Positions 1 through 63,213 of a DNA stretch of 64,000 bases are shown one piece after another. Position 1 is the first letter of the stretch, and each line of letters opens with the position of its first letter. Origin of the DNA: an uncultured Clostridia bacterium (GTDB taxonomy: Bacteria; Bacillota; Clostridia; UBA1381); the NCBI GenBank assembly GCA_947591315.1, contig CANQDD010000042.1, positions 62,001 through 126,000 on the forward strand, read 5' to 3'. Position numbers and translations under genes: made by a program. The notes beneath the pieces are model-generated. The model made no database searches and was not told the origin of the DNA. It saw only the letters and a program-made list of their open reading frames with translations.

Positions 1-130
1 TTCGGAATCCGTATCCGTCACATCCGCGTCTGTAACCGTCGTGGTTGTGGTTGTTGTCTTTGTTCTGTCGTCCCCTACTGTCGTTTCAACCTCTGTATTG
101 GTTGTGGTTGTAGTCGTTTTTTCGTAATTG
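1..130 (-). repeat. Thr-rich spacer at the window edge
   Basis: Residues read KTTTTTTNTEVETTVGDDRT then KTTTTTTTVTDADVTDTDSE. It follows the NHVII strand of a blade, the same sub-position at which the Pro-Glu spacer of unit 4 lies (after HSAAL), where the next blade resumes. It may therefore be an internal spacer and not the start of a C-terminal stalk. Confidence 0.7.
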
Positions 131-1290
131 TATGTATTGATTATAACGTGGTTCGGGCCTAACGCGGCGTTTACGATACCCTTCATCGCGCCCGTTGTAT
201 GGCTGCCGTCGCCGTCGAGCACAGGGAGAGCTATCGTTCTGTTGTACGCCGCCATATCCACGTTGTTCTGCGCGTTCCAAATTTCGCCGTTACCTAACTG
301 ACCGTTGTCGTTGCTGCCCGCGATATACATTGTACCGTCGCGTCTTACAACGGCTATGTTTTTCTCGCCTATCACAACGTCAACCGCGTCGTCGATACCG
401 TACATTCTTACCGGTCTTGCGCTGCTTGAGCTCTGTTCAAGCTCCGTAAGCTCGTCTTTTCCTATACCAAGCTGTCCGTAACGGTTTGAACCCCATACGT
501 ATACGTTGCCGTTCTCCGTAATCGCCGCAGCCGTCGAGCCGGAAGCGAATACCTTTACAATCTTGCCCGTCGCATCCGAACCGAGTATACGTACTCCGTC
601 GTCAAGCTTCGCGGTGCTGTCAGCCTTTGTATCGGCGTTCACTGGGTTGGAAGCCACGTCGCGCGCGTACTGCGGGCCGGAGAGATTACGTCCTACGGTC
701 GAGTTTCTGCCAAGCTGACCTATACCCGCGTCGTTGCGTCCCCATGACCATACGTGACCGTCCTTATCGGCTGCGATTACGAAGTTGTCGCCCGCAGCTA
801 CGGATACAATGCCGCTGAGCGGCTTGCCGCCTACCTTAAGCTGTCCCGCGCCGTCTATTACCGGTGCGTTTATCGTCTTTGTATTTGTAGATACCCCGAG
901 CTGTCCCTTTGCGTTGTCTCCCCAGAGATATACGTATCCGCCGCTCGTGAGAGCCGCCGTGAACTGACCGCCCGTCACAATCATCGGCTGTACCGCCGTG
1001 TCGAGGTTGGACGTTTCGGGCAGCACGTTTACATCGAACAGCGCGTACTTATCGCTGTCCGTCTTTGATACAATAATTCTCGTCGAGCCGACAGCCGTGT
1101 ATGTGAGATCGCCCTCGCTCGTTATCTGTGCCACAGACGGATTGATTGAAGCCGCGTGGAACTGAGCGGTGGTATCATGCTTCTTGAACGCATTGAATAC
1201 GTCGTACGAGAAGCTGACCTTACCCCTTGACGTTCTCTCGAAGTAAGTTTCGTTGTCAATAAGGTTGAGCTTCGTCTTTATCGCGTTGTC
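1..1290 (-). repeat. Unit 32: Ig-like domain + at least 4 RCC1 blades, cut by the window edge
   Basis: Ig-like part 1010-1290 (AQFHAASINPSVAQITSEGD). Blades lie near 925, 745, 493 and 315. The fourth blade strand NAALGPNHVIINTYNYE leads into a Thr-rich spacer at the edge. Three more blades would be expected beyond base 1. Confidence 0.8.
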
Positions 1291-4200
1291 GCTGCCTATA
1301 ACCGTTCCATCTTCGCCCGTTACGTTGATAACGCCCGAGTATACATCCACAAGCTCCGAGCTGCTTGTAAGCGTCGCGTCGCCGAGCTGTCCGCGCGAGT
1401 TGGAGCCGACGGTCTTTATCTCACCTTTCGTTGTGATAAATCCTGACATAGAGCCGTTCGCGCTTACCGCCGCCGCGAGTATATCGCTTACGCCGTCAAT
1501 CTGCTTGATTTCGGGTACATTCGGCTCGTCCGCGGCAAGCTTGCCGCCGCTGTTAGAGCCGACAGCCATAATCGAGCCGTCCTTCTGAACGAATATCGCC
1601 GCGTCGCCGTTCGTTACGTCTATCGTATTTTTGAGTATATCAAGCTTAGCGGGTGCGTACGATGCCGCCTCGCCTTCCGCCGGTGCGTTTACAGGTACCA
1701 AGCCGCTTTCGGTATTACCCCAAGCGTAGTACGCCGTATCGGTCGTGCCATGCGTTGTTGTGAGAGCGACCGCGTTGCCTTCACCCGCCGTTACCTCAAG
1801 GGCGTGAACGCTGTTTTCAAAATCCTTGCCTCTCACTACAGCCTGACCTGTTATCGTGTCGACCGTACCGTCCGCATATTCATGATTTCTGTTTGAACCC
1901 CAGGCTATTATCTTACCCGTTTCCTGAACGCCGTAGCTTGTAGCGTAGTTTTCACCGCTGCCCGCTGAAATCGACGTCACTCTCGATACGGAGGATATAG
2001 TCGGAACGGTTATTACTCTTGTGTTTGTATTATTTACCTGATGATAGAGGTTTGAACCCCATGCGAACACGTCGCCGCCGTTTGTAAGAGCCAGTGCGTA
2101 GCTGTTGCCCGCACTGCCGCCCGCGGAGATCGATCTGATTACTCCGCGTACGCCGCTCTCGTCGGTGCCGTCCGCGAAGAAGTCGAGCTTCGTCGGTACT
2201 TCAACGATTACCTCGTCCTTCGGATCTTCCGTGTCCACCGTCGGGCTCTTGCCCTCGCCGGGCGTTACGATTACGCGTACGTATGTTATTTTCTCATTGC
2301 CGCTGCCGTCCGTTGACGTTATCTTAATGAACGCCTTGCCGGACTTAACGCCCGTTACCTCGCCGTCCGCGGTTACAGACGCGATTGAGGCGTTAGTGCT
2401 TTCGTAGGTCTTTGTCACGGCGTCCGCAATGTATACGCCAATCGTCTGCTTCGCGCCCTTATCCACGGTCATCTCGTTGCCGTACATTCCAAGTCCGTTA
2501 CCGAGCTGACCTACGTTGTTGCGTCCCCATGTGTAGAGGTTGCCGTTTGTATCGACAGCCATAGAGAAGTCTGCGCCGGCGGCAATCTTGCTGAATTTGA
2601 TCTCTTTACCGTCCTTATCCTTTACGCTTACTCTCTGCGGCTTCATATCTATGCTGCCGACTCTTCCGAGTCCCAGACCGAGCTGTCCGTACGTGTTGTC
2701 GCCCCATGCGTACATCTCGCCGTTTGCGCGGAGCGCGAGCATGAAGTTCTCGCCCGCCGCAATCTGCGGATATGTCACGTACTGTTCGTCGGGATAGAGG
2801 TATGTATCGTCATCTTGCTTACCCATTGCCTCGCTGTCGTCGGGCAGAGCGTATACGTGAACGTACATTGTCTTTGACGCGCCGTTTGCGTTCGTCTCAA
2901 CCTTTATGTACGTGTCGCCTATTCCTTGCGCCGTTACAACACCGCTTTCGTCTACCGATGCGATAGACGGGTCAAGCGAGGTGAATGTGTTTGTCGCTTT
3001 CGTATCAGCGTTTCTGTAGAGGTTGAAGCCTTGCATAGCCTTAACCTTTATAGGCTCTGACTGCGCGAGATGTCTGAGTGTCATTTCACTGCCGTTTTCA
3101 AGCTCGACAACAAGATCCGCGCCCACGAGCGAGGCTTCCGGATAATCCGCCGTTACATCCTGATACGAGAGCTGACCCTTGTCGTTCTTACCGAACGCCC
3201 AGACGTCGCCGAATCTGTTGGCGTATGCCGAATATTCTCCGCCCACGGAGGAGGACATGCTTATTATGTTGTTCGCGTTCGCCTGATAACCCTTTAACGG
3301 ATCAAGTCTGTCATTCGGGTCCGCGTCGGCGCTCGTCTTTTCGCCGAGATTTGCTGTGTTCTGGATAACCTTCCTGTTATCCGACAGCGGCTGGGTATCG
3401 CTTGTCACAGTGCCGATACCGAGCTGTCCGCTCGACGCGAGACCGCCCATTACCGCCGTGTCCTTCGTTACGGCGAATATGCTTCTGCCGCCGCCTGCCG
3501 CGAGTACATCCGAAACGCTCGCCTGTCTCGTCGGCGATGTGAGCGTAGGCGGAATAGCGCCGAACTCACCGTTGTCGTTCGCGCCCCATGCCCATACGCT
3601 GCCTGTCTTATCCTTATCTATACGTGAGAGCTGGTCGATGTTGTATACTATCGCTATGGTGTTCTCGTCACCCGCGCCGATTGTCATTGCGCGGTACTCA
3701 AGCTCTGCCTTACCCGTTCTGTAGTCCTCAGTATCCTCATAGTCGCTGATACCGTACTCGTATCTGTTGCCCTTGCCGACGGAGAATACAGAGCCGTCCA
3801 TACGCAGTATGTGCGACGTCGCGCCCTGACCTATCGCAAGCTGAGCGCCGTTGTCGGCTACTCTTACGGGTTCATTGTATGACGCCTGATGCACGGCGTT
3901 GATCTGGTTCCATGCATTGTCGCCCGTGCCGTATACAACGCCGTTCTTTGCGAGGAACAGCGAGAAGCCTTCATCATTCGTAAGACCGCCCGTCGCTATA
4001 TCCACAATGTCCGCAATATATCCGTCAGCCGTAGCCTGCATACCGCTGTGTACGCGTTCGGGAACGCTTATCTTATCAGCCTTGCCTTCACCCAGACCGA
4101 GCTGTCCCTTATCGTTGCGTCCCCACGCCCATACATTACCGTTTGTATCTATCGCGAGTACGCTGTGTCCGCCCGCGGCGAGCTTCGTGATCTTAACTTC

Positions 4201-7200
4201 ACTGCCGCCGTCAGTTATCTCTACCTGCTGCGGGTACAGAGCCGTGCCGAATATCGCGCCGTTACCGAGCTGTCCGTACTCGTTTGAACCCCATGCCCAT
4301 ACCGTTCCGTTCGGTTTCAGAGCGTAGGTGGTGTTCGCGCCCGTTACAACCTGCGGGTATGCGACGTTGTTCGCCTCTGCGTCAGCCGCGTTACTGAATA
4401 AGCCGGTGTTTATAAGATCCTCGTCGCTCGGACGTACCTCAACCCTGAACGTGCCTACGGTCTGAGCGTCGTCCTTCAGCGATACGATTACATAAGTCGT
4501 ACCGATTTCCTCAGCCGTCAGCGTCGCCTGTCTTCTGCCCTCGGCGCTGAAGTTGCCTTCATAACTTATAGAAATTATTTCATTATTCGGAACAATATTT
4601 CCGTTTTCATCGGAGGAGCTGTTCCACGTCTGCCAGATAAGATCGTATTCATCCGACGACGAGCCGCCCGCGCCTTCAAGGAGGTTGAAGGACGCTATCG
4701 GCGGATTGGTGATGTCGAGCGTGTCGCCGACCTTCATCGAATACGTCATCTCGTCAAACTTGAAGTACGATACGCCCGTGCGTACCGGCGTGTATCTGGT
4801 TGTGAAGGTGTTGTCGCCGAGCAGTCCCGTAGCGTTCTCACCGTACGACCATACCGCGCCGTTATTCGTTACAACAACCGAGCGCTCGCCTATGATGTTA
4901 TCGGAAGCGGTCGGGTACTGGCTGCTGAATATGCCGTTCGAGGCAATCATTACATTCTTTATGCCGCCGCTTATATCCGACTTACCGGCGCGTACTCGGT
5001 CTATACCCATGATTACGCTGCCGTCGGTCTTATAGTATTCATCCTGTTCTACTTGGTCAAAGCCGCCATCGTCATTTGGCACGTCTACCGTAATCTGCTT
5101 GCCGGTCTTTATGAGATCTCTGCCGAGCGGCGAGCCGTAGCTGCCGGCAGCCCAAAGGTTGCCTCTTTCGCTGCGGTCAAGCACGGTTTCTGTCGTTTCG
5201 TCATAATCCCTTGTCTTGCTTCCGCCGTCCTGATAGAACATCTGAACGTATGTGGAGATGTCGCCGCCGAGCGGGAACGAGTCAACCGGAGTTGTCTCAA
5301 AAGCACTCGTCTCGTCATTCCAATCGCCGTGCCACGAGAAGTTGTATGCCTTTTCGGGGAGCGTGTAATCGGCGTTATGATGTACCGAATCGTCCATATC
5401 CGCGCCGTAACCGAGCTGACCTTTCGTGAGGTCGCCCCACATGTCAACGTCGCCGTTTATAAGTATCGCGCCGATGTTGTCCGTACCCGCGAACGCCGCA
5501 AGCGCTCTTTCCTTCAGGAGTGCGCGGCTCGGCAAGGTCGACGTGAGGTTAAGCTCTTCGCCGCCTATACCGTAAACGCCTCTTTCGTTGCTGCCCCATG
5601 ATATAATCTGACCGTCACGCTTTAAGAGATGCATCGACTTGCCTATCTTATCGGCAACAAGCTTATAGCCGCCCTGCATAATGGTGTTTGCCGACGTGAT
5701 ATTTCTCGGCAGGAGGATTCGGCTGGTCGCCGAAGCCTGCGGCGATACAACCTTCTTTGTGTTGCTGCCCCAGCCGTAGATATTACCGTCTATATCGAGC
5801 GCGAACGAATACTGCGTCGTCGTTGTGGTGGCTCGTGAGCCTACGCCCGCCGCGGCAATGTCTATAATTCTTGAACCCATGGTATCGCTCGTAAGACTGT
5901 CTCCGAGGTAGTGCTCCTGACCGTTGACAAGTCTCGTCGTGCCGTATACCTTAACGGCGTATCTCTGGATATTGTAGTCGCCTTCGGAAGCGTTGCCGAG
6001 AGCGCCGTTGAAGCCTGTGCCCCAAGCGTATACGTGACCGTCGCTTGTAAGAGCGAGGTTGTGGTTGCCGCCCGAAGCAATCTTTATTACATTCGTGAGA
6101 GCCGTCGGACTTGAGGTCGGTGTTTCACGCTTCAATACCTGAACAGGCTCTGTCGTGTTCTTTGAAGTTCCGTTGCCGAGCTGACCGTAAGCGTTGTCGC
6201 CCCACGCCCAAACCGTACCGTCGGACTTAAGCGCTATAGCGTGCTTTTCGCCTATCGCGGTCATCGGCATTACGTTGCTGCTGTCCTCACCCGCGGGGAT
6301 AACGTTCAGCTTAATTACACCCACGTTCTTGCGTGAGTCGCGCGCGATGAGGTATGTTACACCCGTCTTTTCTCCCACGTGGAGCAAGCCGTGCGCGGCG
6401 CCGTTGACGGCGCTGTTCTTCGTGCCGTTCTCGCCCTGATACATTCCCGTGTCTTCACCGTCGAACCACGCAACGTCATGGTTGACAGATTCAAAGGTGA
6501 GCTGCTGCGGCTTGTACGCCGAGCTGCCGAACAGGGTAAATCCTACGATACCTACAACCGAACCGATGTCGAACTGAACCGTATCGCCCTGTCTTACAGC
6601 CGTTTCGATAACGCCGTCAAGCGCGCCGCCCTTGCGGAGAATGGTGTCATAGTAGAACTTAACGTCGTTCTCCTGATCGTTGCGCGTAATCTTAGCCTCG
6701 GAGAAGTCGAGATAGTTGCCGCCGCCGTCCATGAGAACGGAAGCCGGATACGAGCGGTTCTCCTGAGTACCGTCGCCTATCTGACCTTGAACGTTTGAAC
6801 CCCATGTGAATATCTTACCTTCATTATTGAAGATAACCGCGTCCGCGCCGGACGACGATACAGCCATAGCTATCGCGTCCGTAAACGATGCCTCCGTATC
6901 GAGCGGCTTGCTTTCGCCCGCCTTGAGGAGGTGCTCGCCCGTGTACTTCGCGTCTATGTTAGGATCATGTATACCGAGCATACCAACGCCTTCGTTATGC
7001 GCCGTACCCTCAACAGAATTTCTGTTGTCACCGAGTACGTGCACATTGCCGTTGTCATACGTCACATAACCCGTGTTGCCTACGGCAATCGACGTCGGTC
7101 TTATATCGTCCTTATCAACGCTGCCGTCGTATCTGTTGAACCAGTACGACGGAGTCGGATCGTATACGGTTGTCTCAAACTTAGCCGCATTGGTCTCCTC

Positions 7201-10200
7201 GTCCACCGACGTTTCCATACCGAGCTGGTTATACGTGTTGATGCCCCAGCCGTAGACGGTCTGCGACGTTATCAATTCTCCCGTATCCTCCGTCTTTGCC
7301 GGACGGCCGCCCGTGGACAGAGCCATTACGCTGTGCGCGCCGACAGCCATCGTGACAAACTTTTCGTTCGTCGCGCTGTACGTGAGCTTATTCGTGTCGG
7401 CGTATGCGAGACCGCTGCCCTCGTACTCTGATGAGCCGAAGCTGCCGAATACATTCTCACCCCACGAGATGATATCGCCGCCCTTTGTGAGAATATAGCT
7501 TGTATTCTTGTCCGCGAATATTGCCGCGGGTTTTATCTTTTCGTCTATAAATACCTTCTGCGGTCTTGCTATGTCAACGACCGTACCAGGTCCGAGCTGC
7601 TGCTCGGTGCCGCGTCCGAACGCGTAGATCGTGCCCGAAGCGGTGAGAAGCAGCGTGTGGCTTGTGCCGACCGCTATGTCTATTACACCCTCGATACCGT
7701 CAACATGCGTCGGCGTGTTGACCTGACTGGTGCCTGCGCCGGAGCCGATACCAAGCTGACCGTGGTCGTTAAGTCCCCATGTATATACGTTGCCGTCGGT
7801 CGTGAGCGCTACCATGAAGCTGTCGCCCACGAGCGCTTTTCTTATACCGCTGCTTATTGCTATTGTCGGTGTTGTTGAGAACTTAATCTCGGTCGTGCCT
7901 ATACCAAGCTGACCGTGAGCGTTATCGCCCCAGGTGTAGAGTATACCGCTGTCTGTTACGGCAGCCATTGCGGCATGAGTGGTATCGCCGCCCGTCGATA
8001 CGGACGGAGCAACTATGCTGTCCTTCTGTACCACAACGTCGTTTCTGCCGTCGTACTGAACATCCATCGGCAGTACGTTGATTCTTATTATACCCTTCGC
8101 GTTGCTGCCGCCCTTGTCGCTGCCGGCGTTTACAACAACGTAAGTCGTGCCTACAGATATGGGACTGTCCATATGCTCCGTAGGTCTTATGTGTATTCTG
8201 CCCGCACCGTCTGTAAATACCGTTACGAGGTCGGGGTTGAGCGACCATACCTCTCCCGCCTCTCTGTAGCGGAAGTGGCTCTGAATGAGGTTGAAGCTGT
8301 GCTGTGAATCGACTATCATATTGTTGATATCGTAGTCGAGTACGAGCTTTTCGCTTCTCAAGAGGTCAACCTCGTACGGAAGCACGTTGTAACCGTCCGC
8401 GTCCTTATAAACGCGTATCGGATTTTCCTCATCGTAGGTGTTGTAATTATCCTCCGTTACGCTGTCCGCATATCTCTTTACAACGTAACCGTCGGTTATG
8501 TCTACCGTGTCAATAGTCTTGCCCATACCGACGAGAACAGGTCTGTCCTCGGTGTTGTTTGTGGACGTGCCGAGCTGTTTATCATCGTTTATACCTATGG
8601 CGTATACGTCACCGTTAGATCTTACGAGGAAGCTGAGGTCACCGCCGGCTACAACCCAAATCGTGTCGGCTGCTATCTTCTCAACGGACTCGCGCTCGCC
8701 GCCGAACAAGTCTACAGCAACGTAATTCTCATTGTCAATCAGCGGTACGGCTGTATCGTTATCCTCACTGTGGTCCTTATTGTTGAGGTTCATACCCCAT
8801 GTAAGGACGTTGACCTTATCCTTATTTTCGGGTTCGACAGTCTGCTCCTCCGTGTCAATGAGAAGGAGTGCGTTCATGTGGTTCTCACCCACCGCAATCT
8901 GTCTTACCTCGTCAAGCTGCTTTCCGTTGTACATAACAGCCTTCGGAAGCGGGATATAATCCGCGTCGCTGCCCGTACCGGTCTGACGATGGCGGTTATC
9001 GCCCCACGCCCACGCGGTCATGTCGGTCTTTATCGCGGCGGAGCTGTTGTAACCCGCCGAAATCTTCTCTACGTCATTTATGTACGTCATTACGGGCGCA
9101 ACTCTGTAGTTCTCAATCGACTGCTCGGACGTGGTTTCGCCGTACGGCAGCGGTTTACCGTCATTGCCGTCAACGGTGTACTTCGTCCAGCTAAGCTCGT
9201 CGCCGTCGGTAATTTCACCGAGCTGTCCGTATCTGTTATCACCCCACGCCCATACGCTGCCGTTCTTGTCGAGCGCGAGCATGTGGTTAGCGCCTGCCGC
9301 AATGTCAACAATATCCTCAAGATATGTCGTCATGCTGCGGCTTAAGCCCTTCTTAACTCTCTGCGGAGCAAAGCTTGTATCGGTGGTTGTTTCTATACCG
9401 AGCTGTCCGTATGTATTGTCGCCCCACGTCCATACGTAGCCGCGCTCGTCGAGCGCTGCGGTGAAGCTCTCGCCCGCCGCAATGTCAACGATACCGCTGA
9501 GGTACTCGCCTTCGCCGCCCGTTGTAACAAGCGTCGGAAGAAGTCTTCTGGGATATCCGCCGAGCTGGTTATTTGTACCGTCGCCCCATACGTATACCTT
9601 GCCGTCCTCGGACAGCGCCACGCTGTGGCTCTTGCCCTGCGCCACCTTAATAATACCGGTGAGATAACCGTCGCCTGACGAGCTTCTAACCTGTATCGGC
9701 GCGGATGCGGAGGTATTCTGACTGCCGGCGCCGTTACCGAGCTGTCCGTAGGTGTTATCGCCCCACGTCCATACCGTACCGTCCGCCATAAGCGCGATGG
9801 TGTTTATACCGTTCGTCGATACCATCGGCGAAGTGAATATATCTGTGTCAAATTCCACATCATTTCTCTTTGAGCCTCTGAACTGCAGCTCAAAGGTCTG
9901 AGAGATGTTTCTCGTTCTGTCTCTTATAATAAGCGTCGTTACCGCGTATCTTCTGTCAATAGCCTTCTGCGTCGGCGTTACGAGCCAGTTATCCGATACC
10001 GTGAACAGCGTCGGATCAGCCGATACCATGTAAATATCCTCTACCTGGAACGTATCGGTGTCGCTGTCCGCGATCGCGTTGAGATAATAACGAAGCTCGC
10101 TGTATACCGCGCTCTTGTCAAGCGCGAACTGCTGCGGTTTGCCGTTCTCGTTATTCGTAAGAGTAATCGTTCTCGGCAATACGTCCTCACTCGAGTAATT

Positions 10201-49200: not shown

Positions 49201-52200
49201 AACGGAGCGTCCCCAAACTGACACGTTGCCGTCCAGGTCGACCGCGGTCATGTGGTCGAAGCCAACGGTAATATCCTTTATATTCGCGAGGTCGTCGCTG
49301 CCTTCATAATATATCCACGACGCGGTCACGTTCTGCGGCGTGTTTGTAGATTTAACGCCGGTGTTTGCGTCGCCAAGACCGAGCTGACCGTACGTGTTGT
49401 CGCCCCACGCGTATACGATATGAGTATCTCTCGTGAGCGCGGCGGTATTGTTGCCCTTCGCGGAAATACGGCTTATATCCGAGAGGTAGTAGCCCGCGTT
49501 TTGTACCTCGCCCTTAAATACCTGCACAGCCGTCCTCGACATGGGATGACCGTCCTTCATGGTCATGTAATACTGACCGCTGTCGCCAAGCTGACCGTAC
49601 GTATTGTCGCCCCACGCCCAAACAGTACCGTCTCTCTTGAGAGCTACGGAATGGTTTGAACCCGCTTCCACGGCAACAACGCCCGACAGGTAAATTCTTT
49701 CGGACGATTCCATGCCGTTGTACGCGAGAACGCGCTCCGGCGTTGTGTTATATTGTTTTCCGTCTTTTTCCGGTACAAAATCCGTACCGAGCTGACCGTA
49801 CTCGTTATTACCCCACGCGTAAACCTCATCGTCGTCTACAACGATAAGCGCGTGCGCTCTGCCCGCCGCGATATCCGTTATTCTTTCTTCGCGCGACGCG
49901 TCGTCGCTGTGGAGGAATTTAACAGCCGTTACCTCAACGGGTAAAAGTCTGTTGTCTATGTGCTTTTCGGGAACGGGATCGGGTTCTTCAAAGTACATTA
50001 CGCGCGTCTCTTTAACGGGCAATCCGTCCTCGCCTTTTTTAATCTCAAGCACCGTTTCCGTTTTATAACCGTCGCCGCTGTCGTTGGGTTCGGGCTGACC
50101 GTCCTCGCCCATAACGGTTTTTGTCGTCCACTCGCGCAGATTGACCTCTATCGTTCTGCCGTGAAGCGGCTTGTTGTCCTCGCGGTAGCCGATAACCGGC
50201 GTGAGCGTGTATCTGTCGCTTTCGTTGTTATATACGGGATTTTCTTTTCTCTCGTAACCGAGTATGTAATCGCCGTTTGTATCCTCGCTGTCTTCTTCTT
50301 CCTCGTTCAGAACGAGCAGCTTGTCCTTGTCGTCGCCCATCGGGAAACCGTCGGCGTCAACAGTGATTATATTATCTTCGGCGTCGAGCGTCGCGCCGTC
50401 CTTATCTTTATAAATATACTTTGTGTTTACCGCCTTGGGAACCTCCGCGTATCTGTAGGTTTTAACGCCGCCGTCATCTGTCATCCACAGATACGGACGG
50501 TGATTTTCCTCATCGTAGCCTATAATCTCGTTTCCGCTCAAATCGTAAAGCGTCTGCTTTTCGTACGTCGGCTTTACATATCCGTCGTCGATTGCAACGC
50601 CGAGCTGACCGAGCGTATTGTCGCCCCACGCGTAAAGCTTATCGCCGTCCGCGCCGACCTCGACCGCAAGCGTGAACGTTTCGCCCGCCGCGGCAAGTCT
50701 GAATATGGTATACTCCTCCTCGCTGTCGAGATTGAAGTTACCGTCGTAGTTACTCATCGCGTCCGCGACATGCTCCTGAAGCTCCTCGTAAACCTCTTTC
50801 GTCAGCACGCGCACGGGGTACGCGCGGTCGATCGACGTACCGTCGCCAAGCTGACCGTGATCGTTCGCGCCCCATGCCCACAGACTTCCGTCCGACTTGA
50901 GCGCAACGGTAAAGTCCTTGCCGGAGGTGATTACGGGTTCTACCTGACCCGCCTGCGGAATGAGCTTCAGCGTAATCTGCTTTATGAACTCATTTTTCTT
51001 AATTGTAAGCGTCGTTGTGCCGAAACGGTAATCGTCGTTCGGCGTGACAATGATTTTGCCGCCGTCCATTGTGAGCGTAAACAAATTCGTATTCACGACA
51101 GCAAAATCAGACAAAGTGACATCGGGAATTTTCGCGCCGTCTTTGTCATTGTTGTCAAACAGATTAAATCTGTTTTCTATATCCGTGTAAAGCTCGCCCG
51201 CGTCGATCGCAAGCTGCTCATAATATGCTGTGTTATAGTTGCGGACAAGCTCAACCTCCGTAGGCAGGCTGTCATAAATCTCGCTGCCGCCGGTTGACGT
51301 TTTCTTTTCCGCACTCTTAATATCTATCGTATTGCTTTCCTTCATGCCGACCTGCGTCGGGAAGCTCTTGTCGCCCGTGGAGTAATCGCCGATGTGCCAT
51401 CTTTCGTTTGAACCCCACGAGTACAGTCTGCCGGTCGATCTTACCGCGGACGAATAGTTTTTGCCCGCGCTTATGAGATATACCGGTATCGAATAATCGC
51501 CGTCCGTCTCCTTCTTATCCTTATGGTCGCCGAACTGCGTCTGTTTATATGTTTCACCGTCGTATACGGGAAGCGGAGCGTACGCGTTTTTGTTTTCCGC
51601 GTCGTAAGCCGCTATCTCCGTCATGTCATACTCGCCTATACCGAGCTGACCGCTTGAATTGCTGCCCCACGCGTACATTGTGTCGTCCGTCGTGAGCGCG
51701 AGCATATGGTTGCCGCCTACGGCAACGCTTCTTACATTGTTGAGCTTAACCTCTTGCGGCTGACCCTGTATCGCGTAAGATGATGTGTAGTCCTGCTTGC
51801 CTATGCCGAGCTGACCCGCGTCGTCTCCGCCCCACGTATATAACGTGTTGTAATAAACCGTTCTCGTTATCGTCTCCGGTTCGGGTTCAGGTTCGGGAGC
51901 GGGTTCGGGTTCAGGTTCGGGATCAGGTTCCGAATCAAGCTCCGATTCCGGACCGGGTTCCGGACTAAGCTCGGAATCGGGCTCCAGTTCGGGAGCGGGT
52001 TCGGGTTCAACCGTTTCTTTTACTTCTTTTGATTGCTGCACAATAAGCGCCGCGCTGTGTCCGCCCGCCGCGACATCTACGGCATGGTGGATAAACGTGT
52101 CGCCGTCATATACGTAGTCGCCCTTCCATACCTGTATCGGCACGTTCTTCTGGCTGTCGTCGGCGTTGTTTCCAAGCTGACCGTCCGAATTTGAGCCGAA

Positions 52201-55200
52201 TGCGAATACGTCTCCGTTTCTCTTTACGGCGACCGCAAAATCGTCGCCCGCTTCTATTCTTATAACGTCCTCCAGATTACTCGTAAGGCTCGCGCTCGCG
52301 CCCTTCGACGCTGCCGCGATCACGGGCGTCGTAACTGTCGAGCTTGTACCGAGCTGACCCTGCGTCGCTTTACCCCACGCGTAAACCGTACCCGTTTCAC
52401 TTAGCGCGTACACGCTGCCGCCGCCTGCGGCGAGGCTCAGGAACTTCACGCTGCCGCCAATGCTGTCGGGTATTTCCGCCTTATCCGGCTTCCACGCGTA
52501 ATCGTAATTGTAGCCCTCCTCCTGATGCATCGAACCGTCAGCGTTCTGCGTCGTTACCAGTGTCTTTCTGCCAAGCTGCAGACTTCTGTTGCCGCCGAAT
52601 GTCCAAATGTCGCCCAACGTGTCGAGAGCCGCGGTGAAGTCGTCGCCGACAGCCACGGATATTATTTCCCTGCCGTCGCCGATTTCCACCTGTTCGGGAA
52701 TGTACGAGTATTCCTCGTCCTCAATAATCGTTCTGCCAAGCTGACCCATAGAGTTGTCACCCCATGTATACAGCTTACCGCTTGCCGAAAGCGCAGCCGA
52801 AAAGTCCTTTCCGGTCACAACCTGCGGCAGTGTCAGACCGTCCGTTACGTTTATAACTATCGAGCCGATATAACCCGTTTCGGTGTTGTTTATCACGATC
52901 GTGGCTCTGCCGATTTTACCGTGAGCCTTTATAACGCCGTTCACGCCTGTAATAATTTCGGGTTTTTCTTCTTCATCTTCTTCGCCATCTCCGTCCGGCT
53001 CCTGCTTCTGCGTCTCTATCACCGTTTCGACCGACGCGACCGTCTCATCTGAGGACGAAAATACTATCTTGCCGAGATTTGCCTTGTCGGTCGGGTTAAT
53101 CTTGTTGTTGTTGAGCATGTTAAAGCCGGAAAGAAATTTCTCCGACGTGTTGAGCGCGTAAATCACAGCCTCGGATTCGGGACTGATATTTATCGCCACG
53201 GGAATATCCGCGTCATCAACGGGATAATCTACCGCCTGCTTTGTTTCGGAATCACTGTCGGCGTGTATCTTGTTCATCATCAGAATACGCGCCTCAAGGT
53301 CGCCCGTCATAACGGGCGTGTATCTGTTGTTATACGAAATGTCGCCTATCTGTCCCATGTCGTTAAGTCCCCACGAGTACACATAGCCGTCATTCTTTAT
53401 CGCGATTGTGTGATCGCCCGCCGCGCCGAAGTAGAGCGCGTCGATAAAGTTTGCGCTGCCGTTTTTGTTTACGCTCGTTCCGCGCAGTACCGGCTTCGGA
53501 TCACCAACAGACGCGCTTGAGTGGTCGTCCGTGCCGAGCTGACCTGTCGCCGCGCGGCGCGTCTTAAGCACGTGGTCGCTGTCCTCGTAAACCTCGTCGA
53601 CAGAGTTGTTGCCCCACGTGTAAATTGCCGTCGCGTCGCCGCCGGTAATATCCGACTTTCCTTCTGTATACACGAGCGCGCCGGAATGTTTGCCGCCCGC
53701 GGAAATCTGCTTTATTGTCACGCCCGCCAGACTGCCGCCCGTTGCAGCGCTCTTGATAACGACCGCGCGCGTTTTTTGCGCGTCGGAAACAGCCGACGTA
53801 AGCTGCTGCATATCGTTATTGCCCCAGCCGTAAAGACTGTTGTCAAACGCGAGCACGAGAGCGTGCTCACCGCCCGCCGCAATATCGGCGGCGTTTGTTA
53901 TCTGCGCCGCTTGCGTTTCAAGCTGCGCGTAAACAGGCTGGTTTCTTAAGCTTGTCTCACCGTTCGCAAGCTGACCCTTCGAGCTGTCGCCCCACGTCAG
54001 CACCTTGCCGTTTGAGCGAAGTGCGGCGGTGTAGTTGTCGCCCGACGAAATCTTTATGACGTCGTCCACGTACATATTACCGCTCGGACTTAAGCCGTTC
54101 ATAACTCTCTGCGCCGTGCTTGTATGCTTCGGGAGAGCGTTCGGCAGCTTTACGCCATTATACTCCGTAAACGTGCCGTTGTTACCGTTACCCGTCTGAC
54201 CGTAGTCGTTAGCGCCCAGCGCGTATACCGTGCCGGTACCCGTGAGCATGACGGTGTTGTTGCCGCCGGCGGCAATCGCCGTGATATTTTCTATAGGCGT
54301 AAGTTCGCCGCCCTCGCGCACGTTTACGAGCGACGGATATACAACGTCCTTCTTTGAAAAGTCCGTAAGATTTACCTTTTCGGGCGGATCTGTCTCTATC
54401 ACAAGCACGGGGAGCTTATCCGTATCCCACTGCGTAATGTACTCCCATGTGTTGTCAAAATCCCAGTACTGATCGCTAAACTGAGTTTTGTCGGTGAGGG
54501 TAACGTTGTTGTACGAGACGAGCGGAACGTTTACGTTGTCGGATTCTTCCGAATTGACATTTCCCGCTATGGGAAGCGCGGAATCTGTATACGCGGAAAT
54601 AATACCCGTATAGTTATCTCCGTCCTCCGTCGCCTGCGCGTTATTGCTCGCGACAATGCTGCCTGTAAGATGAGACATATCTGTTGATTTATTCTTTGTC
54701 TCAACCTTGCCGCTGCTGTAAACGGTCTTGATGCCCGCTCCGTCAAGATTGACCGCCGCGATACCCGCCGCGTACGTTGAAAGGCTGTTGCCGTTTTCGG
54801 CAATTTCTATGCTTGCGCGGTTATACACGTTTTCTATTTTACCGCTGTTCTCAACCGCGATACCCGCCGCGCTGGTGTGCGATGATATTGTACCGGAGTA
54901 AACAGCCGACTGCGAAATTTTACCGTTCGGGTTATTTATACCGACGATACCCGCCGCGTACGACCGAGCGTCACTGCTCGTCGAACCGTCCGAATACGTT
55001 AACGTTTCGTTGTTTATATTCACGTCGGAAAGTATAACGCCGTCGATAGTGCCGTTATTGTACGCGAACATGGCTGCAATGAACGTATACTCATCGCTTC
55101 CGCTTCTCATTACGTAATTTTCCGGTTTTGTTATCGTAAGGTGTGAAATTCTGTGACCGTTTCCGTGGAACACGTCGCGGAAGCCCTTTTCTTCCTCCGC

Positions 55201-58200
55201 CGCGTCGTGCTCTTCAAAGTATATCGGCTCAAAGTCATAGCCCGTCATATCGAGGTCAGCCATAACGTTAAACACGTAATAACCTTTTTCCGTGCCGTCG
55301 CCGTAATCGTCATATTCAAGAAGCTTTGTACGGTCTTTTATTATCTCGTTGACCTGCATGAGACCTTCCGGCTCGTATATATTATATGTATAAATCTTAT
55401 TATCTTCGTCAGCGGAGGCTTCCTCGATAGGCTCGTGCGGATCCAGATTCCTGAAGTCCTCGATTGCCTGATAGATACCGCTCTCGCCGTTACCTATCTG
55501 ACCGTGGCTGTTGCTGCCCCACGCGTAAACCTTACCGTCGGAGCGCAGCGCAACGGCGTGGTTCGCGCCCGCCGCGACCGCGATGATATGATCTATCGCC
55601 GCGCCGTCCTCGGTTATTACCTGCACGGGGAGGTACTGCTTACGGTCTATGTACTCGCCGTTTTCAGTACCGCTCTTCTGTCCGTTGCCGAGCTGTCCGT
55701 TATCGTTCGAGCCCCACGCCCAAACCGTACCGTCCGACTTAAGCGCCACAGAGAAGCTGTCGCCGCCCGTTACCATAGGCTCGGTGTAGAAGTCCTTCGG
55801 AGCGGGATCGCTTTCACTCTGTTCCTTTATATTAAGAACAAACATCATCGTACCCGACTTATTAACGCCCTGATTTACAGTGCTTTGCACCTGTTTTGAC
55901 TGCGCGCGAATAACGACGCTTCCTCTTGAAACCGCCGTGATCGTTCCGTCCGGATCTACCGTCGCTATCTTATTGTCCGACGATGTGAAGGTAAGACCTG
56001 ACACTTCATGTGTCGGATCGTCGATAACTATGAGATTGAAGCCGCGTCTCTCCGTGAGAGTGCCGGACGTGCTTATTTTTATCGTGTCACCCTTAACGGC
56101 ATTTACGACCGTCGGGTTTTTCACCGTCTTTGCATCGGGCAGCGTCACGTCAACCGTCAGGATTTCATCGTCGAGCGCGCCCACCTGTACGGGCTTATGA
56201 CGCTCGTCGCGCGACAGGTCGCCGAGCTGACCGTTTGCGTTCGCGCCGTACGCGTAAACGTAACCGTCCTCGCGCATTACGTAGCTGCTGCCGAGACCCG
56301 CGCCGATAGCTTTACTGTCGCCCTTGTATGTTGTATTGTTAGAGGTAAATTCACTTGCCGAGGTCTGCACCGCCACGCTGTGCTTCGCGTCGTCCTTATT
56401 GCCGCTGCCAAGCTGACCGTTCGAGTTGCTGCCGAACTGGTACACATTTCCCTCGGTGTCAAGCACAATCGTGTTGTCGCCGCTCGCCGCAATCGCGCTT
56501 ACCTTAAGCGGACTTGTACCGTCAGTCGTAATATACGCGTAAGCGCCCTTTCCGACAACCTCGGAAACGTACGCGTCACTCAGTCCGCGTCCAAGCTGAC
56601 CTTTTGAGTTGTCGCCTATGGAGAGCGCCATGCCGTCCTCTCTTAAAAATACCGTGTGGTTGTCACCTGCGGCAATATCCACAATACCGCTCAGGTTTAT
56701 AGTGTCTTCGGTATCGCCTTCATACGTATAATCATAGCTGCCGCTGCCCCAAGAGAGCGGGAACGGGCGGCTGTAATTGCTTCCACTCTCCATATCACCG
56801 CCGGACTGAGTATATTCGTTTGAACCCCATGCTATTACATATTTATAGCTGTCGTGTGAATCGTCCGTTTTCGTATAGCTGTCCGCTATCGCAACGGAAT
56901 GATTTCTACCCGCCGCAATCTTTACGGCGTCTCTTATATACACATCTTCACTGTAAGCATCAGATGTACCGTCTCCTTCTTCCTCGGCGCTGGACTCCGC
57001 CGCCTGAGCGTTTATGACGCGCACGGGCGTGGCAACGTATTGACCTTCGCCGATAAGCGAATCGTCAACCGTGTAACCGAGCTGACCGTAATCGTTCGCG
57101 CCCCACGCGTAAATGCTGCTTATATCTCTCTGGCGCATCGCGGATACAGTGCCGCCGCCGTCCTCCTCCTCGTCAATGGTGTCGTTGAAATAATGCTCCG
57201 TTGTTTTTACAATCGCGAGCGAATGTCTGCCGCCTGCGGCAATATCCTGCACGAACGCGAGATACTCGTCCGCGCCGTCGAACGTGCCGCTGAACACCTT
57301 AACGGGACGGTTCTGGTCAACCGTCGAATCTATACCAAGCTGACCGTACGTGTTATCGCCCCACGCGTAAACGGTCTGGTCGCTTGCGAGAGCGAGAACG
57401 TGATGCTCGCCCGCCGAAATTTTATGTATGCCCTTCAGAACCTTATTATTTTCCTCGGGATAAACGTACGCTCCGCCTTCGCCGATTGTCACAGGCTCCG
57501 CCGCGGCAAGAACCTGAACGGGACCCTGCGTGTCCTCTGTCGCGCCGTCTCTTAAACCGTAGCCGAGCTGACCGTGCGTATTCGCGCCCCATGCCCAAAC
57601 CGTACCGTCGGACTTTAAGGCGACCGTGAAGTCGTCGCCCGAAACAATCATCGGAACGGCAAACATATTCGGCGGCGCAACGTTCAACTTGATTTCACCC
57701 TTATCGACCTTTGCCTCTGCGGGAGACTGATCCGTTATGACGAGAGTTACGTCTCTCTTTTGGTCATGGAAGTCCTCCGGCGTCGCCACATACCATTTTA
57801 TACCGTCGCTTGTGTTGTCCGCTCCCGTCACAACGCCGGACGGATCGGGGTCAAGAGCTACCGGCTGCGCGGGTTCAAGCTGCTTGTTATTCTTGTAAAG
57901 GTTAAAGCCGACGTCCTCCAGAATTTTAATGCTGTCATAATCCACCTTTACCTTCTGCTCCGTGGTTATGTAAAGCGTGGAGGGGATTGCGCTGTACCTT
58001 GTGTATTCGTTTATGATTTCCTCGTTGCCGTCCTCGTCCTCCTCGGCGATAACGACGTGGTTCGCGATAAGCTTCTTTACCTCGCCGTCACCCGTGAGAA
58101 CGGGAGTGGGTTGATTTTGTTTTCCGTAACTGAGATTACCGAGCTGACCGTAGGTGTTTGAACCCCACGACCAAACCGTACCGTCCGACTTCACGGCTGT

Positions 58201-61200
58201 CGCGGTAAACGTTCCGAGAACAACCTGATCTACGTCGGTCATGTAATTGTTGTAATTGCCGCTGAAGTCCTTTAATACTCTGCCCGGATCGGACTGGTGC
58301 AAATCAACAACGCTGCCGCTCGAATCGGTGTACGTAAAGCCGAGGTGCTTATACGTGTTGTCACCCCAGACGTAAACGGTACCGTTATAGCTTCCATCAC
58401 GCGCAACGACCGCCGCCGTGTTTGTCGCCGACGCCGTTACGGAAACTACTTTATTATTGAAGCCTTCAAAATGCATACCGCTCTTTGAATCGTCCACGTC
58501 GGATTTAACAGCCGTCGGTATCGGATTGGATTTAAGTATACCGTCGCCCAAATCATCGGTTGTGTAACCGAGCTGACGCGTTTCGTTGTGTCCCCATGTA
58601 TACACATTATCGCGCGGTGTGTCGAATACGACTACCGAGTGGAACTTCAGCTCCGCTGTCGAACCGGTAGAGGTGTCGGTTTTTTCGGTAAACGTTCCGC
58701 CCGCGGCTATGTCGGTAATGTAACCGGGAGCTTCGTCTATCACTCTCTTTACGGGTTTGTTTATATATGTTACACTATTATAGTCATCATTATTGTTGAT
58801 AAGCAGCCCGTCAACGTTCGCGCCCCAAATATAGAGGTTGTGATCCACGTCGAGAGCCATCGCATGTGAGTAGCCCGCCGATATCTTTATTATCTTTCCG
58901 AACTCTTCGCCGTCCATCGTTGTGTCAACGGGTGTCGCCACACCTATATCGTAAAACGACGCTTCCGGCTTGTCGTCGGTGTAGCTTTCACCGATACCAA
59001 GCTGACCGTAGATTGAAAGTCCCCACGCGTAAACCTTGCCCGTCCTGGTAACCGCATACGACGCGTACTCACCCGCGTAAACATACTCGACATCAGACAG
59101 TACATCGCCGTCGTCCTTAACGACGAGCGTCGGGTTGCCGTCGGAGGTGGACGGAGCGTCCTTGCCTCTGCCGAGCTGACCGTTATTGTTCATACCCCAC
59201 GAATAAACGTATCCGTCATTCGTAACCGCGAGCGCGTGACCGTCGCCGACGGCTATGTGTCTTATGCCGGTGAGGTCGGTGAGCTTACCGCCGCGCTTTA
59301 TCTGTATATTGTTCGGAGCCATAACCGATGTACCGGTCGCGTTTGCAAGTCTGTGGTCGTCGGCGCTTCCCCAGCCCCATACCGAACCGTTGTTCTGCAA
59401 AGCGAGCGTAAACGTACCGGTCGAAACAACCATCGGTATCGCCGACGGCGTTACCTCGCCCTCGACTTCGCCGTACACTTCAAGGTTAAGGATTTTATTA
59501 TTGCCGTCGTCGTTAATTTCTATAGTGGTGCGTCCCTGTGAATTACCTGTTATCCTGCCGTCCGCGCCCACCGTCGCCATTCTGTCGTCCGTCACGGTCG
59601 GCGTGCCGGAGTAGTGGTAACCCTTCATCGACAGCAAATCGTTAAGCGACTGGCTGTCACCTACGCGTATCGCGATTGTCTGACCGCCGACGCTCGAATT
59701 GAGGCTTTCCGCGTCGGATGAAAGAGTGCCGACCGCCATGAGGCTTATGCCGTTATCCTCGTCGAGCGATATTGCCTCAAGGTCGTAATTCTCGGAAAGC
59801 TTGTCCTCTATTTCCGGGAACTCCTCGGCAAATTCTTTTTCGTTTACGGTGACTTCATTTTCGTCCGTCTCCGTTTCCGCTTCCGTCTTATCATCAACCC
59901 CCCCCTGATTACTATCCGACAGGTCGGGGGCGTTTTCTTCTTTATTTGTCTCATCCGATTTGTTTTCTTCGGGAGCTGTTTCCGTTTCGTTCTTGCCGCC
60001 TGTAATTTCAGCGGACGGCTTCCCGTTTTGAACGTCTTTATCGGAAGCGTCAGCGCCGTCGTTTTCGGTAACGGTATTGTCCTCCGTTACCTCCGGCTGA
60101 AAGTCCTCGTTCTTCGAGCCGGTCTCCGAACCAAACTGCGCGAGCGGAGCGGAGCTTTCACTTTCGCTCTCGTCGGACGAGCCTTCTGCGGTAACGGTTT
60201 TCTCAACCGTTTTTTCAACTTCTGTTTCAACGGTGTTTTCACGCGTTCCGTTTTCGGTCGACGTCGTAACATTCTCCGTCGTGCCGACATTCGGCTCAAC
60301 GTCCGTAAAGTAATCGTTCGAGCTTGACGTTTCGTCCGACGAAACAACTCTCGACGAAATAACCTCGCCGTCGGCGCTCGTGACCGTTTCGGTAACGACC
60401 TTCTTTACAACGACCGTTTCCCTTACGCTGTACTGCGTTCCCGTCGGGACTTCCTCCTCGACCGTTTCCGTAACCGTGTCGTATACGGTCTGCACCGTCG
60501 GAACGGTGATTGTCTCGGTGACGGTTTCCATATCGCCGTCCTCGTTGAACACTTCCGTTTCGATTACCTGCTCCGTCTCGACCGTTTCCTCTCTCGGAAC
60601 CTCTTTCGTTACTTCCTTTGTAACCGTTTCATACTGCGTTTCGGCGTCAAGGATCTCCGTTGTCGTCGTTTCGGTCGTGGTGGTCTCGGTTGAAACGTTC
60701 TGCGTTTCGGTGGACGTCACTTTTTCGGTAACGGTCTCCGTAACCGTCTTTGTCTTCGGCTCACTCTTTACGCTTTCCTCCGCCTTGGGAGCGTTCGGCG
60801 TACTCTCCGATTTCTCCGTAGCAGTCTCAACAGGCTTCTCTTCCGCTTCGGATTTTGTCGTTTCGGGCGCGGCCTGCTTTGCTTCCTTTTCGGATTCACC
60901 ATTATTATAGGAAGAAACTCGTTCACTTTCGTCGTCCGCCGTCTCCGTATTATCGTCCGTCGAGGCGAGTGAGAACGTCGTGTCGCCAAGCTCGTTCTCT
61001 CTCAGGCTGTCCATGAACAAATCGGTGTCAACCATGCCGAGCTCCGATATTATCTTATCGCCGTCGTCCTCGGGTTCTTCCTCCTCAACAGGCGAATACG
61101 TCTTGTCCTCCGAATCGTCAAACAGCTTTGACAAATCGTAGTCCGAGTTTTCCTGCGACAAGCCTTCGTTATACATCTCGCGGAGAAATTCTTCAACCTC

Positions 61201-62030: not shown

Positions 62031-62036
62031 CCTCCT
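62031..62036 (-). promoter_or_regulatory. Ribosome binding site of the giant gene
   Basis: AGGAGG on the minus strand, five bases before the ATG at 62025. A full-strength Shine-Dalgarno that fixes this start. The signal peptide follows immediately. Confidence 0.92.
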
Positions 62037-62105: not shown

Positions 62106-62134
62106 ATTGTAAGACTTTTTTCTTGAATTGTCAA
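62106..62134 (-). promoter_or_regulatory. Sigma-A-type promoter of the giant gene
   Basis: Minus strand: -35 TTGACA (62134-62129), 17-bp spacer, -10 TACAAT (62111-62106). A perfect -35 and five of six in the -10. Predicted start is near 62099, giving a leader of about 74 bases before the ATG. Confidence 0.75.
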
Positions 62135-63184: not shown

Positions 63185-63213
63185 CGTAGGGGCGACCCTT
63201 GCGGTCGCCCGCC
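63185..63213. repeat. Short palindromic repeat, second GTAGGGGCG copy
   Basis: GGGCGACC-CTTGC-GGTCGCCC, a perfect 8-bp stem (63190-63210), in the same CGTA...CGCCC frame as the copy at 63108. It ends 11 bases before the spmB ribosome site. Confidence 0.72.

What the first reader, a model, noticed from the sequence alone, without database searches (positions are those of the whole stretch)
1..62025. A single gene of more than 20,675 codons fills the window
The frame is open from a well-supported start to the edge with signal peptide, ribosome site and promoter in place, and the RCC1 motifs stay in the same frame at every place sampled. Very few bacterial proteins are this long (a Chlorobium protein of about 36,800 residues is a known extreme). 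At typical bacterial elongation rates one chain would need more than 20 minutes to translate. If extended, about 32 propeller-Ig units could span a few hundred nanometres.
Basis: partly seen in the sequence, partly recalled or inferred. Interest (0 to 1): 0.95.

Follow-up and report, generated by a model that had tools for sequence, protein, structure and literature searches.

The report
Giant 33,065-residue bacterial surface protein
An uncultured bacterium of the Clostridia, with a near relative from what is probably rabbit gut, carries one real, conserved gene for a 33,065-residue exported protein built of about 38 propeller-shaped domains and a long stalk, probably a giant fibre on the cell surface; proteins of this size are known, but I found no description of this build.

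Summary
The minus-strand frame opens at window 62025 with a promoter-like site, a Shine-Dalgarno sequence and a signal-peptide-like start, runs through base 1 and stops 37,173 bases further on: 33,065 codons, 99,198 bp, about 4% of the draft genome. It is not an assembly chimera: a second species, separately assembled, has a collinear 33,033-aa copy, 93.5% identical, open throughout, with dN/dS of 0.13-0.34 in every full 1,000-codon window. A third species has up to 29,380 aa.

Anatomy: acidic N-region; about 250 RCC1 blades in about 38 propellers separated by Ig-like domains; a cadherin-like tract (C-terminal part 8-9 kaa in all nine copies measured); a tail with two dockerin-like halves, below Pfam's cut-off. 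Propellers match one-to-one between species (36 of 38). Downstream lies a conserved cluster of secreted proteins; its third gene ends in SLH anchors in both species where it is complete.

Most likely it is a surface fibre or adhesin, held non-covalently. Attachment and ligand are inferred. Giants of this size, including about 40,000-residue ones from gut Oscillospiraceae, are in print; the propeller-array build was not described in the papers I searched.

The parts
1..62025 (-). Window part of the giant gene: codons 1-20,675 of 33,065; the remaining 12,390 codons and the stop lie left of base 1 (C42:24828-62000)
   Evidence: conservation in a second species
62106..62134 (-). Promoter-like site TTGACA-17-TACAAT, 11 of 12 matches
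   Evidence: consensus match only
62031..62036 (-). Shine-Dalgarno AGGAGG, five bases before the ATG
   Evidence: read directly
61927..62025 (-). Signal-peptide-like N-terminus (basic start, hydrophobic stretch), aa 1 to about 33
   Evidence: read directly; same start in G008; no signal-peptide program was available
59605..61926 (-). Acidic, Ser/Thr/Glu-rich N-terminal region, aa ~34-807; no Pfam domain at E 0.001 before aa 860
1..59604 (-). Window part of the propeller array: RCC1 propellers, mostly seven-bladed, separated by Ig-like (Big_2-type) domains; whole array aa ~808-23,827, 248-250 blades, 38 Ig-like hits
   Evidence: fold model, PDB matches
54280..55470 (-). About 397-residue insertion inside the third propeller (aa ~2186-2582)
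   Evidence: gap between blades; nature not tested

Best explanation
This is one gene for an exported, extracellular modular fibre of 33,065 residues. SHOWN: a single open frame under purifying selection along its whole length; an N-terminal array of about 38 RCC1 propeller + Ig units; a cadherin-like tract; a tail with two dockerin/EF-hand-like halves separated by an acidic linker, seen in nine of nine tails read; a conserved cluster of other secreted-looking proteins downstream, of which gene D carries SLH repeats. INFERRED: it leaves the cell by Sec, folds domain by domain as it emerges, and stays at the surface non-covalently with its C-terminus inward, either through the split dockerin-like tail and a cohesin-type partner or through the cluster proteins. 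The cadherin-like tract acts as a stalk of nearly constant length and the propellers as a many-headed, outward-reaching binding array (adhesin or scaffold for mucin, plant fibre or other cells). The array seems to differ in length at the N-terminal end: 13 and 15 units in two species, 37 to 38 in three (G008 by its Ig-like hits).
For: Whole-length reality: (32,996 aligned residues, 93.5% identity, 51 codon-length gaps, dN/dS 0.13-0.34 in each of 33 full windows). Array; unit model pLDDT 76, pTM 0.74, best PDB matches UVR8 chains with TM 0.82-0.86 by target length. Nearly constant C-part, 8.1-9.2 kaa, against a varying number of propellers in nine genomes, four of them cut by contig ends on the propeller side. 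One-to-one propeller matches G000 vs G014, 36 of 38, collinear. Shared end: 14 of the 17 reciprocal matches to the short forms (7 of 9 with G002, 7 of 8 with G005) fall in the ten units next to the stalk. Export: signal-like N-terminus, 0.05% Cys in the window part. Cluster: a related gene directly downstream in 6 of the 6 carriers where more than 1 kb of downstream sequence was held; SLH repeats at the end of gene D in G008 (123.9 bits) and G014 (125.4 bits). Surface context: SLH in 16 of 16, cohesin in 15 of 16 and dockerin in 14 of 16 genus genomes; a cohesin-cohesin-SLH protein in one carrier, G013; a cohesin over the cut-off in the window's own genome (C16, 37.7 bits).
Against: The tail is below Pfam's dockerin cut-off of 22.9 bits: 16.3 in place. 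Of seven tails typed without the linker, five match Dockerin_1 at 14.2 to 22.8 bits, one matches only EF-hand models and one matches nothing. The single-sequence model of the tail is uninformative (pLDDT 42). No cohesin-SLH protein was seen among the G000 and G008 cohesin-hit proteins that I read or scanned. Of the cohesin hits, those in G000:C20 and G014:C3 did not reappear in hmmscan even at E 10; the one in G008:C4 was missed in the whole protein but found in the piece (40.9 bits). Blade columns that I take as exposed loops (by recall of the RCC1 topology) are the least conserved between matched propellers (0.19-0.38 identity against 0.58 mean), so a fixed ligand per propeller is not supported. 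Three genus genomes of 90% completeness or more lack the C-terminal match, so it is not essential to the genus. No expression data. Orientation and ligand are untested.
Confidence: 0.55

Rival explanations
1. A polyprotein: the chain is real but is cut after export into many smaller propeller proteins and a stalk, which act separately.
For: Suggested for other giants in a passage of PMC13104272 that cites a preprint. The acidic low-complexity stretches at both ends and inter-domain linkers could be cleavage sites.
Against: No protease domain in the Pfam scans of the protein (E 0.001-0.01; about ten residues at locus joins not covered); no repeated cleavage motif was sought. Collinear one-to-one propeller order between species fits a chain whose order matters, but does not prove it.
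Confidence: 0.2
2. A free secreted matrix or effector protein, not attached: RCC1 propellers act on host or competitor proteins, as RCC1-type Legionella effectors or the beta-lactamase inhibitor BLIP-II do (functions recalled; the Legionella paper seen as a search listing only).
For: No LPXTG or SLH found on the protein itself; the propellers' sequence and fold matches include RCC1 and BLIP-II.
Against: Matches are by general fold, at most 26% identity among the 50 listed; gene D of the cluster ends in SLH repeats in two species.
Confidence: 0.15
3. An assembly artefact: repeats from several genes joined into one frame.
For: Draft genome of 42 contigs; the second copy is from a contig with a NODE-style assembler name, so probably also short reads.
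Against: Two separate assemblies agree over 33 kaa with 17,854 of 17,856 anchors collinear; a third species matches unit by unit; no near-identical tandem repeats in the window, and propellers of one gene are at best 39% alike, so mis-joining by repeats is very unlikely.
Confidence: 0.02
4. An open frame that is no longer expressed or is decaying.
For: No expression data.
Against: No stop in 33,065 codons; dN/dS 0.13-0.34 in all 33 full windows; third-position G+C 0.61-0.64 along the gene (0.585 in the last 65 codons), close to pgk 0.658 and tpiA 0.653.
Confidence: 0.02

Closest known systems
Giant proteins of uncultured gut Oscillospiraceae (~40,000 residues), reported in PMC13104272 (passages read)
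   Same: Size class; Bacillota_A there and Clostridia here (for the relative); gut of mammals including rabbits; many domains on one chain
   Different: That paper's main text does not mention RCC1 and its supplement could not be read, so I cannot tell whether these are relatives; the present gene is 33,065 aa
Giant ORFs of Omnitrophota, e.g. Velamenicoccus archaeovorus 39,678 aa (PMC10066038, passages read)
   Same: Single frame of tens of thousands of codons, proposed extracellular coat or adhesion; dockerin domains occur in one of them
   Different: Passages describe 42 transmembrane helices, few annotated domains and poor conservation; here propellers and sandwiches cover most of the chain and it is conserved between species
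RCC1-repeat propellers (RCC1, UVR8, HERC, BLIP-II)
   Same: Same repeat family and fold
   Different: Known examples have one to a few propellers (recalled); here about 38 alternate with Ig-like domains
Cellulosomal dockerin proteins and cohesin-SLH anchoring scaffoldins
   Same: Duplicated DxNxDG-type loops at the C-terminus; cohesin, dockerin and SLH proteins in the genus
   Different: The two halves are separated by 210-403 residues of acidic linker in the five of nine genomes where my pattern found both, and score below the family cut-off
Giant1-5 surface proteins of Apilactobacillus kunkeei (PMC12863079, search listing with start of abstract and one reference passage only)
   Same: Consecutive genes for very large extracellular proteins
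   Different: 3,000-8,000 aa; the word propeller does not occur in that paper's main text

Membership tests
RCC1 repeat family | Pfam RCC1 repeats above the curated cut-off | tested here: met
   PF00415 from 57.9 to 339.9 bits in each 1,000-aa piece of aa 1-24,000 (one of these pieces was scanned in two parts), cut-off 21.7
RCC1 repeat family | Seven-bladed propeller | tested here: met
   25 of 38 Ig-to-Ig intervals hold exactly seven blades, the others 1 to 14; unit model pTM 0.74 with RCC1-fold matches
RCC1 repeat family (function) | Guanine nucleotide exchange or other known RCC1 activity | not testable with these tools
   no assay
Giant bacterial surface proteins | One intact frame of more than 5,000 codons, conserved as coding | tested here: met
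Giant bacterial surface proteins | Export signal | tested here: inconclusive
   Signal-like N-terminus by inspection; no prediction program
Dockerin type I proteins | Dockerin_1 above Pfam cut-off (22.9 bits) | tested here: not met
   16.3 bits in place; with linker left out best 22.8 bits, two of seven without a Dockerin_1 match
Dockerin type I proteins | Calcium-dependent binding to a cohesin | not testable with these tools
   needs recombinant proteins
Sortase-anchored (LPXTG) proteins | C-terminal LPXTG, hydrophobic stretch, basic end | tested here: not met
   Tail read directly in nine genomes; the genus does have sortases, 15 of 16 genomes
SLH-anchored proteins | SLH repeats in the protein | tested here: not met
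   none for the giant; present in gene D of G008 and G014
Omnitrophota-type giants | Many transmembrane helices | not tested
   no helix predictor was run

The most novel reading that the evidence does not exclude
A surface fibre of a new build: a stalk of fixed length bearing a row of about 38 individually kept, non-interchangeable propellers whose far end has lengthened during evolution of one genus, clipped to the cell by a dockerin split in two by a long acidic linker, and assembled with the secreted and SLH-anchored proteins encoded by the same cluster.
Probability: 0.3. Interest if true: 0.78.

Novelty: new variant of a known kind. Interest (0 to 1): 0.62.

Why it matters
It gives a clean case in which a bacterial protein of more than 33,000 residues can be shown, from sequence alone, to be selected as one coding unit along its whole length, in two separately assembled species, with a shorter and two much shorter complete relatives for comparison. 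That makes the standing question of whether giant genes are real and whether their length is used testable: the stalk is nearly constant, the propeller number varies, and the propellers keep one-to-one identity between two of the long forms. It also shows an RCC1-propeller array far larger than the solved examples and a cluster of partners to test.

Tried and rejected
Assembly chimera and recent tandem expansion: rejected. Antisense ORFs of up to 686 aa: taken as shadows of the coding frame, since one opposite frame has only 206 stops. Classic anchors (LPXTG, SLH, choline binding): none found on the giant. Split dockerin: for G000, leaving out the linker raised the Dockerin_1 score from 16.3 to 21.7 bits; G005 gave 22.8, three others 14.2 to 19.0, and G013 and G014 gave no Dockerin_1 match; no scrambled control was run. 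So I keep it as a hypothesis. My pattern found the second half in only 5 of 9 tails because it was written too narrowly; the other four are visible in the printed tails. Fold of the tail from a single sequence: mean pLDDT 42, not used. Idea that each propeller keeps its own ligand: not supported, loop columns are the fastest. Cohesin partner in the window's genome: a cohesin domain is there (C16) but in a secreted-looking protein without SLH in what was read; the second hit (C20) did not reappear in hmmscan. Name of the window's organism: not obtained; only the G008 relative is named. G004 and G020, whose copies are split over several contigs, were left out of the architecture comparison (9 of 11 carriers used; only G000, G008, G014, G002 and G005 are complete). 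Unit matching used 34 of the 38 units. Literature: six paper searches.

Full report
OBSERVATION. The window holds one minus-strand ORF from ATG 62025 to its left edge, 20,675 codons without a stop; the five other frames over the same stretch have 206 to 1,146 stops each. The window is C42:62001-126000 of a 42-contig, 85%-complete genome of 2.34 Mb. With the DNA to the left the frame ends at C42:24828-24830: 33,065 residues. AGGAGG lies five bases before the ATG and a TTGACA-17-TACAAT site about 80 bases before it.

IS IT REAL. A same-genus genome (G008, another species) has a frame of 33,038 codons stop to stop, 33,033 aa from the matching ATG. A contig of the same length and match is CANQKM010000006.1, 'uncultured Clostridia bacterium isolate Lapin-030__bin80' ('lapin' suggests rabbit, my reading). 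Aligned end to end as proteins: 32,996 positions, 93.5% identical; 17,854 of 17,856 unique shared 14-mers are collinear; the 51 gaps are whole codons by construction of a protein alignment, but both frames are open from end to end; dN/dS is 0.13 to 0.34 in each of 33 full 1,000-codon windows. Another species, G014, has up to 29,380 aa. No tandem DNA repeat reached the threshold in the window. Third-position G+C is steady along the gene and near that of pgk and tpiA. I take the gene as real and selected along its whole length.

ANATOMY. Pfam scans of the chain in about 1,000-aa pieces (about ten residues at locus joins not covered) give RCC1 from aa ~860 to ~23,830, a few Big_2 domains, then cadherin-like sandwiches (PF12733; below its cut-off in several pieces, no hit at all in aa 24,001-26,000) and a carboxypeptidase-regulatory-like domain, below cut-off, near aa 32,550. 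Profiles trained on the protein itself find 248-250 blades, 38 Ig-like hits and 21 cadherin-like repeats after the array. Written in order, the units read Ig-then-blades again and again; 25 of 38 intervals have exactly seven blades, and the irregular ones (1, 2, 5, 6, 8 or 14) lie mostly beyond aa 12,600, among them one interval of 14 that is probably two propellers with a missed linker. A model of one Ig-propeller-Ig stretch, with 20 units of the window as alignment, has pLDDT 76 and pTM 0.74 and matches UVR8, HERC, RPGR and RCC1; by sequence the same propeller matches UVR8 at 7.6e-40 and also BLIP-II. The N-terminal ~800 residues are acidic and without a Pfam domain at E 0.001. The tail carries a loop like GDVxxxGDSxxxVDDxD, then an acidic linker, then CDFNxDGxxNxxD and about 30 more residues; both halves can be seen by eye in nine of nine tails, but the match to Pfam's dockerin stays below cut-off.

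EVOLUTION. In 70 genomes of the family, 14 match the C-terminal alignment: 11 strongly (9 of 16 in the genus, plus one each in two other genera) and three weakly. Three genus genomes of 90% completeness or more, G010, G011 and G015, have none. Among the five complete genes, propeller units number 38 (G000), 37 (G014), 15 (G002) and 13 (G005) by the unit count; G008 resembles G000. The part after the last blade is 8.1-9.2 kaa in all nine measured; four of these nine are cut by a contig end on the propeller side. G000 and G014 units are reciprocal best matches in the same order for 36 of 38, at 36-60% identity, while the best match inside G000 is 24-39%; the two exceptions are partial units. Against G002 there are 9 reciprocal matches (units 13, 27, 29, 31, 34-38) and against G005 8 (27, 29, 31, 34-38), all in order along both chains. 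So the stalk-side propellers are the shared core, and the far propellers differ between long and short forms; whether by growth of one or loss in the other is not settled. Between matched propellers, columns I take as buried are kept and those I take as exposed loops are not (34 of 38 units used).

NEIGHBOURS. Directly downstream, same strand, is gene B (2,048 codons in G000), with dockerin matches (23.5 bits in its C-terminal piece, cut-off 22.9); related open frames begin 220-329 bases after the giant in 6 of 6 carriers where more than 1 kb of downstream sequence was held; three others end within 1 kb. Then comes gene C (about 800 aa in G000) and gene D, a further giant with YDG repeats in G000. 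D is cut by the contig end in G000 (5,058 codons); it is complete in G008 (5,737 codons) and G014 (4,972 codons), and in both it ends in SLH repeats. Upstream, on the other strand, lie genes that look like spmA/spmB, pgk, tpiA and gpmI, named from their sequences by recall.

SURFACE CONTEXT. In the 16 genus genomes, SLH is found in 16 (45-116 matches each), cohesin in 15, dockerin in 14 and sortase in 15. G013, a carrier, has a protein with two cohesins and three SLH repeats. The window's own genome has a cohesin over the cut-off at C16 (37.7 bits) at the end of a secreted-type protein in which no SLH was seen in what was read; its second cohesin hit (C20) was not seen by hmmscan, although the same kind of protein in G008 (C9) does match, 32.1 bits. 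So possible partners exist, but none is identified.

HOW IT MOST LIKELY WORKS. Shown: one coding unit, its domain order, its conservation and its cluster. Inferred: Sec export, attachment with the C-terminus inward by the dockerin-like tail or the cluster proteins, and a propeller array reaching outward as adhesin or scaffold. If each propeller-Ig unit spans roughly 8 nm and each cadherin-like domain 3-4 nm (recalled sizes), a fully stretched chain would reach a few tenths of a micrometre and perhaps 0.6; at 12-20 residues per second (recalled) one chain takes about 28-46 minutes.

WHAT IS KNOWN. Passages read in PMC13104272 report 19 proteins above 40,000 residues from Omnitrophota and from gut Oscillospiraceae of humans, mice and rabbits, maximum above 57,000; RCC1 is not mentioned in its main text, and its supplement was not readable here. 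Passages in PMC10066038 give 39,678 aa for a Velamenicoccus giant, and in PMC12057145 up to 85,800 aa, citing a preprint not held. PMC11573180 (passages) surveys proteins over 5,000 aa and notes dockerins among them. Six searches brought up no title or abstract describing a giant RCC1-propeller array in Clostridia or a split dockerin; subscription papers and preprints are mostly outside that library, and I read only the passages named.

VERDICT.

Noticed in passing
window 63186-63209; 51 places in G000: A palindromic REP-like element, GGCGACCGCAAGGGTCGCCCCTAC and near copies: 51 matches with up to 2 mismatches in the genome, 0 for the reversed control; none of the listed places lies inside the giant gene.
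   Followed up: partly
L009 15062-15069 (G000) and L043 13417-13425 (G008): Gene D has a run of 8 G in the signal-peptide region in G000 and 9 G in G008, where the signal-peptide-like start and the rest of the frame are out of register: a possible phase-variable tract or an assembly error.
   Followed up: partly
L009 18413-18440; L043 9960-9993: The Gly/Glu-rich C-terminal end of gene B is encoded by GGAGGAGG-type repeats that lie just before the start of gene C and could serve as its Shine-Dalgarno sequence.
   Followed up: partly
window 54280-55470: About 397 residues inserted in the third propeller; by eye it resembles GLUG-type repeats, but the Pfam scan at E 0.001 did not name it.
   Followed up: no
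G004 (C51, C220, C333, C544, C586): One 600-contig genus genome with 8% contamination holds two C-terminal copies and a 17,112-codon RCC1 frame, so either two giants or two mixed strains.
   Followed up: no
L102, G008:C6 130742-140000: A further secreted-looking protein of at least 3,086 codons, open at the end of the fetched stretch, follows gene D in G008, so the cluster of large genes goes on.
   Followed up: no
L099, G000:C16 1996-4943: A cohesin-bearing protein in the window's genome is split over two ORFs that overlap by four bases, while its G008 relative (L111) is one 1,877-aa frame.
   Followed up: partly
L109, G008:C4: hmmscan on a 2,316-aa protein missed a cohesin that it found at 40.9 bits in a 316-aa piece: scans of long repetitive proteins, the giant included, can miss domains.
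   Followed up: partly
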